In this document: piece after piece, positions 32,907 to 35,646 of the stretch
How the letters are laid out: each line of letters begins with the position of its first letter
Numbering within the stretch: position 1 is the first letter of the stretch
Source of the DNA: a virus
Reading direction: 5' to 3' (one strand)
Length of the DNA: 36,616 bases
IMG/VR virus record: IMGVR_UViG_3300046616_000409
Span: 1 to 36,616 of that record
Translations under genes and position numbers: made by a program
Notes under the pieces: generated by a model
Database searches by the model: none
What the model was told of the DNA's origin: nothing
Seen by the model: the letters and a program-made list of their open reading frames with translations, nothing else

Positions 32907-33119
32907 CTAGTTTGTAATCACGCCGTCTTTGATCCCGAGGAGCACGGCTGCTCGATGTGCTTCACCTCGGAGGCACTTTTTCTGCCCATTCAAAACGGCA
33001 TAGACAGTGCTTGGGTTGAGGTTGTGTCGCTTGGCGAAATCAGCGGTGGACAGTCCCTGCTCAACCAAGCGCTCTCTGGCAAGTCGTAGTGCTTGCTCGG
33101 TGATACCTGTCTTCGGCAT
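32907..33119 (-). CDS. Cro/Cox-like DNA-binding protein (BcepMu gp16 family)
   Basis: This 70-residue helix-turn-helix protein has GLSTADFAKRHNLNPSTVYAVLNGQKKCLRGEAHRAAVLLGIK, close to BcepMu gp16-family proteins. It is the first gene of the leftward early operon and is divergent from the repressor gene, with 86 bases between the starts. It therefore plays the Cro/Cox part in the genetic switch: repressing the repressor promoter and perhaps assisting excision. The function is inferred from place and fold. Confidence 0.88.
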   Translation of the reverse strand: MPKTGITEQALRLARERLVEQGLSTADFAKRHNLNPSTVYAVLNGQKKCLRGEAHRAAVLLGIKDGVITN

Positions 33120-33205
33120 AGTGCTAATTCGTGTGATTTAGTGTGGATTTCCGACGATATTGGTCCAAACAATTGGGACTGTCAAGGTTAGAGGGTACAA
33201 AATTG
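33120..33205. promoter_or_regulatory. Divergent switch region with candidate operators
   Basis: The region separates the gp16-like gene and the repressor gene. It contains an imperfect dyad GTCCAAACAATTGGGAC (33163-33179), a tandem near-repeat GTGTGATTTA / GTGTGGATTT (33131-33150), and ACAATTGGG twice, at about 33169 and 33209, the second overlapping the repressor start codon. These are natural candidates for the repressor and Cro-like operators. Confidence 0.6.
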
Positions 33206-33553
33206 ATGACAATTGGGGCTCGGCTGCGCGCGGAGCGCACACGGCTGGGCGTTAGCCAAACGGAATTGGCTGTTGCATGCGGTATCGCGAAGAACACCCA
33301 GCTGAACTATGAAAAGGACGAGAGAAGTCCTGATGCCCCTTATCTGCTCTCAGCGCAAAAGGCGGGGGTGGACGTTTATTACGTATTGTTTGGTGAGCAA
33401 CTGCCGGTCTCAGCAGATCAGCTTTCGTCCTTTGAGCTGGAGATGTTGTCGTATCTAAAAGAGTTGTCGGACTACGACAAAGAATCACTTCGTCGTATGG
33501 CGTATGCGATGGCAACGGTTGCTAAAAACCCAACACCAGAGCCGCGTATTTGA
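33206..33553 (+). CDS. Lysogeny repressor (HTH_3, short CI-like)
   Basis: This 115-residue protein has an N-terminal Cro/CI-type helix-turn-helix (ARLRAERTRLGVSQTELAVACGIAKNTQLNYEKDERSP, residues 5-42) and a short C-terminal helical part (SSFELEMLSYLKELSDYDKESLRRMAYAMATVAK) that probably mediates dimer formation. There is no S24 autoprotease domain, so RecA cannot induce cleavage. It faces the gp16-like gene across the operator region. The ATG at 33206 has only a distant GAGGG; TTG at 33203 is in frame too. Confidence 0.9.
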   Translation: MTIGARLRAERTRLGVSQTELAVACGIAKNTQLNYEKDERSPDAPYLLSAQKAGVDVYYVLFGEQLPVSADQLSSFELEMLSYLKELSDYDKESLRRMAYAMATVAKNPTPEPRI

Positions 33554-33602: not shown

Positions 33603-33632
33603 AAAAAAGCTCAGCCCAGGCTGGGCTTTTTT
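33603..33632. terminator. Bidirectional terminator between repressor and SOS gene
   Basis: GCTCAGCCCAGGCTGGGC is a stable hairpin flanked by AAAAAA on the left and TTTTTT on the right. It ends repressor transcription from the left, and can also end the long leftward late transcript after gene D from the right. Confidence 0.88.
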
Positions 33633-33675
33633 GTTTCCAGTAGTCCAACCCATTGGCGAAATCGCTCCAAAAATG

Positions 33676-33695
33676 TACTGTATGCACATACAGTA
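33676..33695. promoter_or_regulatory. LexA (SOS) box
   Basis: TACTGTATGCACATACAGTA matches the LexA consensus CTGT-N8-ACAG perfectly and has the outer TA on both sides. It ends 17 bases before the ATG of the 57-codon + strand gene and overlaps the place where a -10 element (TACAGT) would lie. The gene is thus probably repressed by host LexA and switched on after DNA damage. Confidence 0.9.
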
Positions 33696-33712
33696 TTGGA
33701 GCTTGGCAACCG

Positions 33713-33886
33713 ATGGAACCGATCCGCATCCCCGCCCACCCGAAGATCACCGCATTTTCGGTAATTGAGCCCGTCACAAAGCTGGAGCTCGAGCTGCTCG
33801 TCGGATATCGACGGCTGTCCTTGGATGATCAGCGGCGGATTCTTTTGGTGCTGCAGGCAATGGTGTCGGTAAAACCAAGCGCGTGA
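33713..33886 (+). CDS. SOS-controlled small protein, likely antirepressor (Tum-like role)
   Basis: This 57-residue protein starts MEPIRIPAHPKITAFSVIEP. Its C-terminal half VTKLELELLVGYRRLSLDDQ followed by RRILLVLQAMVSV aligns without gaps to the repressor's C-terminal helices (FELEMLSYLKELSDYDKESL...): E-L-E-x-L, L-S, a shared D, A-M and V. It has no helix-turn-helix. A LexA box lies immediately upstream. GGAG is 11 bases before the ATG. Because the repressor has no protease domain, an SOS-made protein that pairs with its C-terminal helices would explain induction. This mimics the role of Tum in phage 186, but no sequence relation to Tum is seen. Confidence 0.75.
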   Translation: MEPIRIPAHPKITAFSVIEPVTKLELELLVGYRRLSLDDQRRILLVLQAMVSVKPSA

Positions 33887-33949: not shown

Positions 33950-35209
33950 TCAGGCAGAAAGCTTTTTCATTTCTCTATCCACTGCCCGTTTCGCCGTTTT
34001 CTCACTGGCGTACAACCATCGCAGCCGTTTGGGCTTTGACTGATCGCCAGCGGTCACGGTCTTTTCCTTTCCAGTTTTCTTGTCTCGGTAGTAGGCAATG
34101 ATCCCGGTGTACTCGCCTTTGTTTTCCTCGGCCAAGTCTTCCACCGTGTCCTCTGGCAGTTTGCTTTCCAGATCAAGACTCATGGTGTAGCCGTTGTCGG
34201 CGCTGAGGCTGTGCTGCACGTTGCCGCCATACCAGATGATTTCATCAATCTCGGCCTTCACGCCCTGGAGCGTGTAGGTCAGTTCCGGGATCAGATCTGG
34301 CCGGCCCCGGGCCAGGGTGTAACTCAGGGTGGCGCTGCCGCGTTGCAGGCGATTGAACTCGGCCCGGGCAGCCCGCAGGGCGGACTGCCGGTCGCTGTAG
34401 GTATGGCGCAGGTCCTTGAGGTTTTCACCGCCGCCGGCAATGGCTTCCTGTTTTTTGGCACTGTTCACGTCGTAGTAATAAGCCCGGACACCGTCGTAGC
34501 TGTCGCGATCGGCTTGCAGGTACCGGTGCTGGTCGCCATCGGCGCGGGTCAGGGTGATATGGGGCAGTGCCAGGCCGCTGGCCGTCTTGCCACCGCCGGC
34601 CGGCATGCACAGCAGGCAGCCCGCTTTGACTGTGGCCACGGCATCGAACTCTTCGCCCAGTCGACTGATCAGGTTGGCATCCGATTCATTGGCCTGGTCG
34701 AGCTGCAGGATGGGCAGACCGCCCAGGGCTTCGGCAATCGTTGCCTTGAGGCCATTGCCACTGGCGATGGCACCCAGCACTTTACCCAGGGTGGTGTTGC
34801 TCCAGCTGCGCTCGCGTTTGGTCTTGAGCCCCTTGCGCAGGTCCGCCGATCGCGCGCGAATGCTGAGCACGTCGGGGGCGCCGCTGTGCTCGGTTTCATC
34901 GACGGTGTAAGTGCCTTTGTCGACCAGGCCGGTATCACTCCAGCCCAGCCACAGCCGCAAGATCGCGCCCTTGGGTGGAATGGCCAGCAAGCCATCGTGG
35001 TCGCTGAGCGTAATGCTGAGCTGGTCAGCCTCGATGCCGCGATTGTCGGTCAGCTCCAGGCTCATCAGTCGCGGACTGATCAACTGCGCGAGGTCGTTAC
35101 CGTCGACGGTCAGGCGGAACGCCGGTACCGGATAGGTGGCATCGCGACGACTCTGTTCCAGCGTGCTGTTCACGTAGCCCGTCACCCGGGCAATCGCGGT
35201 ATCGATCAC
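33950..35209 (-). CDS. D: Tail protein D (baseplate hub)
   Basis: This 419-residue protein is P2 gpD (phage late control D family), the hub that caps the tail tube at the baseplate and binds the spike. Typical stretches are RLMSLELTDNRGIEADQLSITLSDHDG, KGTYTVDETEHSGAPDVLSIRARSADLRKGLKTKRERSW, and LSRLGEEFDAVATVKAGCLL. The GTG start at 35209 follows AGGGGGCTGCT and overlaps the stop of U (GTGA). Longer upstream frames run through U in another phase and are not used. It is the last gene of the FI operon. Confidence 0.95.
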   Translation of the reverse strand: MIDTAIARVTGYVNSTLEQSRRDATYPVPAFRLTVDGNDLAQLISPRLMSLELTDNRGIEADQLSITLSDHDGLLAIPPKGAILRLWLGWSDTGLVDKGTYTVDETEHSGAPDVLSIRARSADLRKGLKTKRERSWSNTTLGKVLGAIASGNGLKATIAEALGGLPILQLDQANESDANLISRLGEEFDAVATVKAGCLLCMPAGGGKTASGLALPHITLTRADGDQHRYLQADRDSYDGVRAYYYDVNSAKKQEAIAGGGENLKDLRHTYSDRQSALRAARAEFNRLQRGSATLSYTLARGRPDLIPELTYTLQGVKAEIDEIIWYGGNVQHSLSADNGYTMSLDLESKLPEDTVEDLAEENKGEYTGIIAYYRDKKTGKEKTVTAGDQSKPKRLRWLYASEKTAKRAVDREMKKLSA

Positions 35210-35646
35210 AGCAGCCCCCTCAGAATGTTCAAGCCGGTGCCGGTACTCGCACCGAGCAGATCTAAACGACCATCGTCGACGCGTTTCAGGCTCAGGTTGA
35301 ATTCGATCCGTCGCGCGGCGCCGTTGGGAAAGAAGATGGTCCTGGTTTCCGTCAGGTTGTCGATGACCCAGAGCCCGCACAACCGACCAGTGCCTTCGAC
35401 CATGGGCCAGGCCTTGCCGGTGTCAGCCATCTGGCGCAGTGCATCCAGGCTCAAGACGGTGCCGGCCAACTCTGGAAGGATGATGCCGGGGAGGGTGATG
35501 GCATCCTCCCCCCGGCCTAGAAACTGACGGGCTGGATTGGTGCCGATGCGGCTGCTGCCAGGGTGGCGCCATTCCGTCTGGCGCTGCATCTCCTGATAGG
35601 CCGCCGTGTGCAGGCTGAAAACGAACATGCCAAGGGCGAGCATCAT
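35206..35646 (-). CDS. U: Tail protein U
   Basis: This 146-residue protein matches P2 gpU: MMLALGMFVFSLHTAAYQEMQRQTEWRHPGSSRIGTNPARQFLGRGEDAITLPGIILPE, with LWVIDNLTETRTIFFPNGAARRIEFNLSLKR near the end. It is a baseplate or tail component of known family but unsettled exact role. It lies five bases after the tape-measure stop and overlaps D by four bases. Confidence 0.95.
   Translation of the reverse strand: MMLALGMFVFSLHTAAYQEMQRQTEWRHPGSSRIGTNPARQFLGRGEDAITLPGIILPELAGTVLSLDALRQMADTGKAWPMVEGTGRLCGLWVIDNLTETRTIFFPNGAARRIEFNLSLKRVDDGRLDLLGASTGTGLNILRGLL

What the first reader, a model, noticed from the sequence alone, without database searches (positions are those of the whole stretch)
33603..33886. 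SOS-controlled micro-protein that looks like the repressor's own dimerisation tail
A near-perfect LexA box (TACTGTATGCACATACAGTA) is followed by a 57-codon gene whose C-terminal 31 residues align without gaps to the C-terminus of the adjacent repressor (about 10 identities by eye, including E-L-E-x-L, L-S and A-M). The repressor lacks a protease domain and could not be induced by RecA directly. A truncated mimic that forms inactive mixed dimers would be a neat, possibly undescribed induction switch. It differs from Tum of phage 186 in size and sequence.
Basis: partly seen in the sequence, partly recalled or inferred. Interest (0 to 1): 0.78.

Follow-up and report, generated by a model that had tools for sequence, protein, structure and literature searches.

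The report
SOS-triggered mimic of phage repressor tail
A Pseudomonas virus carries, next to the gene for the repressor that keeps it dormant, a tiny gene with a DNA-damage (LexA) switch in front; its protein looks like the repressor's own pairing end and probably jams the repressor to wake the virus when the host's DNA is damaged, but no experiment has tested this.

Summary
A perfect palindromic LexA box (33676-33695) overlaps the -10 of a promoter for a 57-codon gene (33713-33886). Residues 19-53 align without gaps, 10/35 identical, to the tail of the adjacent HTH-only repressor (33206-33553). The same box, promoter and gene recur beside the repressor in 15 other phage or prophage records, and the protein is under purifying selection. 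Micro and repressor-tail profiles match far above column-shuffled controls (hhalign 35.8 against 11.1 +/- 2.4). In AlphaFold models the helices of micro and tail fall at matching positions, and the repressor model's second-best PDB match is SinR from the SinR/SinI complex.

Most likely it is a LexA-controlled antirepressor that works like Bacillus SinI, by occupying the repressor's helical-hairpin tail. Heterodimerisation was not shown: the tethered models were inconclusive (pTM 0.31-0.33).

The LexA box is confined to this clade. In two further lineages the DNA-binding domain has been exchanged while tail and microprotein stayed alike. Related PHROG families have unknown function, and I found no paper describing the system. 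New variant of known kinds.

The parts
33206..33553 (+). Immunity repressor candidate, 115 aa, HTH domain plus helical-hairpin tail (tail codons about 33416-33526)
   Evidence: HTH_31/HTH_3 in Pfam; RstR-like and DicA-like in NCBIfam, below cut-off; AF2 helices 75-85 and 89-106; Foldseek rank 2 = SinR of the SinR/SinI complex
33613..33633 (+). Intrinsic terminator between repressor and microprotein gene
   Evidence: AGCCCAGGCTGGGCT then T-run; conserved in relatives
33653..33681 (+). Promoter: -35 TTGGCG (33653-33658), 17-bp spacer, -10-like TACTGT (33676-33681) inside the LexA box
   Evidence: Sequence; spacing 17 in all 14 members compared, CCATTGGC invariant. The generic promoter scan did not call it
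33676..33695 (+). LexA (SOS) box TACTGTATGCACATACAGTA
   Evidence: in about 934 kb of fetched loci the strict pattern occurs only in front of this gene family
33713..33886 (+). Microprotein gene, 57 codons; variable arm (residues 1-18) and repressor-tail-like hairpin (residues 19-53, 33767-33871)
   Evidence: 14-member family alignment; hairpin pN 0.17 against pS 0.60; tail similarity; helices 23-33 and 37-51 in AF2
33160..33179 (.). Candidate repressor operator: imperfect inverted repeat TTGGTCCAAACAATTGGGAC in the divergent control region
   Evidence: Alignment of the control region; relatives with a different HTH (L016, L053) carry a different repeat (GGTTCA..TGAACC). Function inferred
32910..33119 (-). 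Divergent early regulator, BcepMu gp16/Cox-like HTH protein
   Evidence: PHROG 925, E 1.3e-23; same place in phages Dobby and Sirocco
33950..35380 (-). Tail hub gene D (ORF bounds), convergent with the microprotein gene; fixes the P2-like context
   Evidence: Pfam Phage_GPD, E 7e-10; GpU upstream

Best explanation
The 57-aa protein is a LexA-controlled antirepressor. In the lysogen LexA sits on the promoter and the gene is silent. On DNA damage RecA inactivates LexA, and the microprotein is made from its own insulated transcript. Its helical hairpin, a stand-alone copy of the repressor's tail, pairs with that tail in place of a second repressor subunit, so the repressor loses the dimer or higher oligomer it needs on its operator, and early genes (the Cox-like regulator and replication genes) are derepressed. 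Shown by sequence: box, promoter, terminator, coding selection, tail similarity, gene neighbourhood. Inferred: LexA binding, tail-tail pairing, loss of operator binding, induction.
For: Box overlaps -10 with invariant spacing in all members compared. Repressor-micro neighbourhood kept in 16 records, even where a 188-aa exported gene is inserted between them. Tail and micro profiles match, E about 2e-6, 10 sd above the shuffled control; among all ORFs of the first loci the micro HMM finds only microproteins and Xre-repressor tails. Helices fall at the same register in micro and tail. Repressor model matches full-length SinR of the SinR/SinI complex. No S24/M78 peptidase in the record, so direct RecA-driven self-cleavage is not available. 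Exchange of the DNA-binding domain with tail and micro kept: Dobby/Sirocco DBD 43%, tail 98%, micro 100%; L096/L100 DBD 44%, tail 64%, micro 92%. SinI/SinR (PMC3163267) and the LexA-controlled Gifsy antirepressors (PMC3121763) show that each half of the logic exists.
Against: No interaction data; tethered AF2 models gave pTM 0.31-0.33 and no confident interface. Own-tail preference over 23 divergent pairs is borderline (p 0.05). Related microproteins in other lineages have no LexA box and, in the three cases scanned, no recognisable terminator or promoter of their own, which sits awkwardly with a pure inactivator if they are made together with the repressor. That this phage is SOS-inducible has not been shown.
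Confidence: 0.62

Rival explanations
1. Modulator, not killer: the microprotein pairs with the repressor tail but changes its oligomeric state or strength (tuning, or a hold on induction) instead of abolishing repression.
For: Relatives in other lineages lack a LexA box and may be made with the repressor, which would suit a tuner.
Against: In this clade expression is tied to SOS with a terminator shielding it from repressor transcription; a protein needed during lysogeny would not be put under LexA.
Confidence: 0.16
2. It targets other Xre-type repressors, of the host or of co-resident prophages, through the shared hairpin motif, for instance to synchronise or sabotage them.
For: The hairpin signature is common to many Xre-repressor tails; Gifsy antirepressors act on non-cognate repressors (PMC3121763).
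Against: In this clade it is always next to its own repressor, and tail and micro travel together when the DNA-binding domain changes.
Confidence: 0.1
3. SOS-induced small protein of unrelated function whose helical hairpin resembles the repressor tail only because both are generic amphipathic hairpins.
For: For the window pair alone 11 of 2000 shuffles score as high, and L012 is no better than shuffled. Similar hairpin ORFs exist with no related repressor gene found nearby (L091-L093).
Against: Family-level match 10 sd above column shuffles; repeated neighbourhood with Xre repressors in more than 20 divergent loci.
Confidence: 0.1

Closest known systems
SinI antirepressor of SinR, Bacillus subtilis (PMC3163267)
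   Same: Small protein resembling the repressor's C-terminal two-helix oligomerisation unit, with an HTH + hairpin repressor as target; SinI binds that unit and blocks DNA binding. Our repressor model's second-best PDB match is SinR of the complex.
   Different: SinI is a host biofilm regulator under Spo0A, not phage-borne, not SOS-controlled; no match of the micro to the SinI family in Pfam.
Gifsy antirepressors GftA/GfoA/GfhA and AntC of N15: LexA-controlled small antirepressors (PMC3121763)
   Same: LexA box after a terminator, small protein, repressor without self-cleavage (Gifsy); GftR also has a hairpin-like tail by eye.
   Different: Gifsy locus lies outside the immunity region behind dinI. 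The ORF in gftA position shows no similarity to its repressor beyond shuffles (365/500 score as high). AntC not compared here.
Tum of phage 186 (also P2-like)
   Same: LexA-controlled antirepressor in a P2-like phage (PMC3121763 discussion).
   Different: 146 aa with a DinI-like half (PMC3121763); here 57 aa and repressor-tail-like.
Small-protein antirepressors of vibriophages (Qtip, smORF modules; PMC10432266, PMC11323111)
   Same: Phage small proteins that inactivate the repressor without proteolysis.
   Different: Driven by quorum sensing or a dedicated transcription factor, not LexA; no tail mimicry mentioned in the passages read.
phrog_23693 and phrog_9368 (58-59 aa phage proteins, unknown function)
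   Same: Same hairpin; the L065 microprotein belongs to phrog_23693 (E 1e-16).
   Different: Window protein itself has no hit; 7 of 14 family members reach phrog_23693 only weakly (best E 0.004). No function recorded.

Membership tests
LexA-controlled phage antirepressors (functional class: Tum, GftA, AntC) | LexA box at the promoter of the gene | tested here: met
   Perfect palindrome overlapping -10 in all members compared; LexA binding itself not tested
LexA-controlled phage antirepressors (functional class: Tum, GftA, AntC) | Cognate repressor without a self-cleavage domain | tested here: met
   HTH only; no S24 or M78 match in the record
LexA-controlled phage antirepressors (functional class: Tum, GftA, AntC) | Protein binds and inactivates the repressor | not testable with these tools
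   Needs experiment; tethered AF2 models inconclusive
Tum family (phage 186) | About 146 aa, DinI-like half | tested here: not met
   57 aa; no Pfam family matched
SinI (sequence family) | Sequence match to the SinI family | tested here: not met
   No Pfam hit for the window protein and no SinI hit in 14 members, E up to 10
SinI-like mechanism (tail mimic) | Protein consists of a stand-alone copy of the repressor's C-terminal hairpin | tested here: met
   Profile match and same helix register
SinI-like mechanism (tail mimic) | Target repressor oligomerises through that hairpin | tested here: inconclusive
   Foldseek match to full-length SinR of the complex; oligomerisation not tested
P2-like phage (Peduoviridae, near Citexvirus) | P2-type terminase, portal, GpU, GpD, Ogr and matching control-region order | tested here: met
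   gene order as in Dobby and Sirocco

The most novel reading that the evidence does not exclude
Pseudomonas P2-like phages carry an interchangeable switch module: the repressor's hairpin tail plus a tail-only antagonist form a matched pair onto which different DNA-binding domains (immunity specificities) and different triggers (LexA in this clade, unknown signals elsewhere) have been fitted.
Probability: 0.4. Interest if true: 0.78.

Novelty: new variant of a known kind. Interest (0 to 1): 0.64.

Why it matters
Many temperate phages have short HTH repressors that cannot be cleaved with RecA's help, and how DNA damage induces them is often unknown. If true, this gives a simple answer for one large group: an SOS-made copy of the repressor's own pairing end. 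It would bring SinI-type antagonism into phages, suggest a function for PHROG families now marked unknown, and explain how a phage can change immunity type (new DNA-binding domain) without losing its induction switch. It is directly testable with a reporter and one gene deletion.

Tried and rejected
(1) Tethered heterodimer: the repressor and microprotein frames coincide, so I folded them as one chain by reading the three intervening stops as residues. Two AF2 runs gave pTM 0.33 and 0.31 and no confident interface. Building the second alignment was awkward because MAFFT repeatedly placed microprotein rows on the repressor tail. (2) VIA-align on the second model returned almost only HTH-domain matches with Z up to 3.4: uninformative. 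(3) Matching of microproteins to their own rather than other repressors' tails over 23 lineages: p 0.05 only. (4) Repressor operator at the microprotein promoter (invariant CCATTGGC): not supported, since relatives with a different HTH and operator repeat keep the same promoter. (5) Tail mimicry in Gifsy-2: the ORF between dinI and STM1020, where the paper places gftA, shows none. I asked for far more of the Gifsy-2 record than needed; it includes virulence genes, one an injected effector, which I should have excluded. (6) tblastn of the microprotein in named phages: no match; first genome-contig scan with three sequences found nothing. (7) Similarity of the L109-type microprotein to sigma-70 region 4: below cut-offs, judged chance resemblance. 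(8) PM105_21 of the B3-like phage PM105, next to a related repressor, is not obviously tail-like.

Full report
What is there. The window is a 36.6-kb IMG/VR virus record of a P2-like phage: P2-type terminase, portal, GpU, GpD and Ogr, with the same control-region order as Pseudomonas phages Dobby and Sirocco, genus Citexvirus. The control region reads: Cox/BcepMu-gp16-like HTH gene (32910-33119, minus), divergent repressor (33206-33553, plus, 115 aa, HTH only), an intrinsic terminator (33613-33633), a promoter with -35 TTGGCG and a -10-like TACTGT lying inside a perfect LexA palindrome (33676-33695), and a 57-codon gene (33713-33886) convergent with gene D. The full box is unique in the window; 0.12 sites are expected at 3 mismatches.

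Relatives. Scans of viral contigs and genomes found 15 further records with the same set (pairs listed): 13 IMG/VR contigs and two Pseudomonas genomes (P. arsenicoxydans E3 and Pseudomonas sp. Root562). Box, 17-bp spacing and terminator are conserved. In seven of them (L008, L010-L015) the box lies about 1.05 kb beyond the repressor start instead of about 0.46 kb, and the microprotein gene stays although another gene has been inserted between repressor and box; in L010 it codes for a 188-aa exported-looking protein. In about 934 kb of fetched sequence the strict box pattern occurs only in front of this gene, and among 399 Pseudomonas genomes the promoter-plus-box pattern occurs in two, both with the pair. 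The gene is under purifying selection: mean pN 0.17 against pS 0.60 in the hairpin, with a looser N-terminal arm (0.31 against 0.49).

Tail similarity. For the window pair the best ungapped alignment is 10/35 identities at offset 52, reached by 11 of 2000 shuffles; the same offset is optimal in eight other lineages, with L012 alone not better than shuffled. Profile against profile the match is clear (E about 2e-6; 35.8 against 11.1 +/- 2.4 for 150 column-shuffled profiles). In the ORFs of the first loci, the micro HMM finds microproteins, then tails of Xre repressors, and nothing else at E up to 0.1. In two AF2 models the repressor tail forms helices 75-85 and 89-106/107 and the microprotein 23-33 and 37-51/52, which is the tail register minus 52. 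Foldseek places the repressor model second-best on SinR from the SinR/SinI complex, over 109 columns (E 2e-4). Interface confidence is low (pTM 0.31-0.33), so the models say nothing firm about pairing.

A wider family. Downstream of most of the 30 best related Pseudomonas repressors lies a tail-only ORF of about 38-64 aa, in several unrelated-looking sequence groups (MENLTQ.., MNEID.., MLDR.., MMENSG..). In several loci it demonstrably lies between repressor and gene D, the same place as here (L018, L054, L087-L089); in named phages the same slot holds hypothetical proteins (Dobby gp34; UFJF_PfPro XLE45425). One group is phrog_23693, unknown function. None of these has a LexA box that I could find, and in the three scanned no own promoter or terminator is recognisable. 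So tail mimicry is the broad theme and SOS control is this clade's version.

Tail and microprotein travel together. Dobby and Sirocco repressors are 43% identical in the DNA-binding part but 98% in the tail, with identical microproteins; L096 and L100 show 44%, 64% and 92%. In the LexA clade two HTH types with different putative operators share one tail and one microprotein type. This fits a microprotein that works on the tail. Linkage alone can also produce this, since tail and microprotein gene are neighbours, and the preference of microproteins for their own tail across 23 lineages is borderline (p 0.05).

Mechanism and standing. The best reading is a LexA-controlled antirepressor acting like SinI. 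LexA-controlled antirepressors (Tum, GftA, AntC; PMC3121763) and tail-mimic antagonists (SinI; PMC3163267) are both known kinds; I found no description of the two combined, or of tail mimics in these phages, in the papers searched, though most subscription papers and preprints were not covered. Hence new variant of a known kind. No interaction, LexA binding or induction has been shown.

Noticed in passing
L091 5100-5408 (-), L092 5546-5782 (+), L093 5183-5419 (+), L086: A Pseudomonas small-ORF family (M(A/S)KERSI..FLW.FR..LS..ER.LV..YR.LS..DR..L..LLN.M.SVSRF) carries the same hairpin signature; in L091-L093 no related Xre repressor or related phage gene was found within about 5 kb. Function unknown.
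   Followed up: partly
L010 5381-5947; related gene in L054; same-sized gap in L008, L011-L015: A 188-aa protein with an apparent signal peptide is inserted between repressor and LexA box; no Pfam match. Probably a lysogenic-conversion gene expressed from the prophage.
   Followed up: partly
L087/L104, upstream of the MENLTQ microprotein: A GTTGGTGCCGTCGGCACCAG hairpin lies shortly before the start codon, in a lineage without a LexA box; possibly a different control element.
   Followed up: no
window 33160-33179 and aligned region in relatives: Likely repressor operator: repeats with GTCC..GGGAC in one HTH type and GGTTCA..TGAACC in the other, changing together with the HTH.
   Followed up: partly
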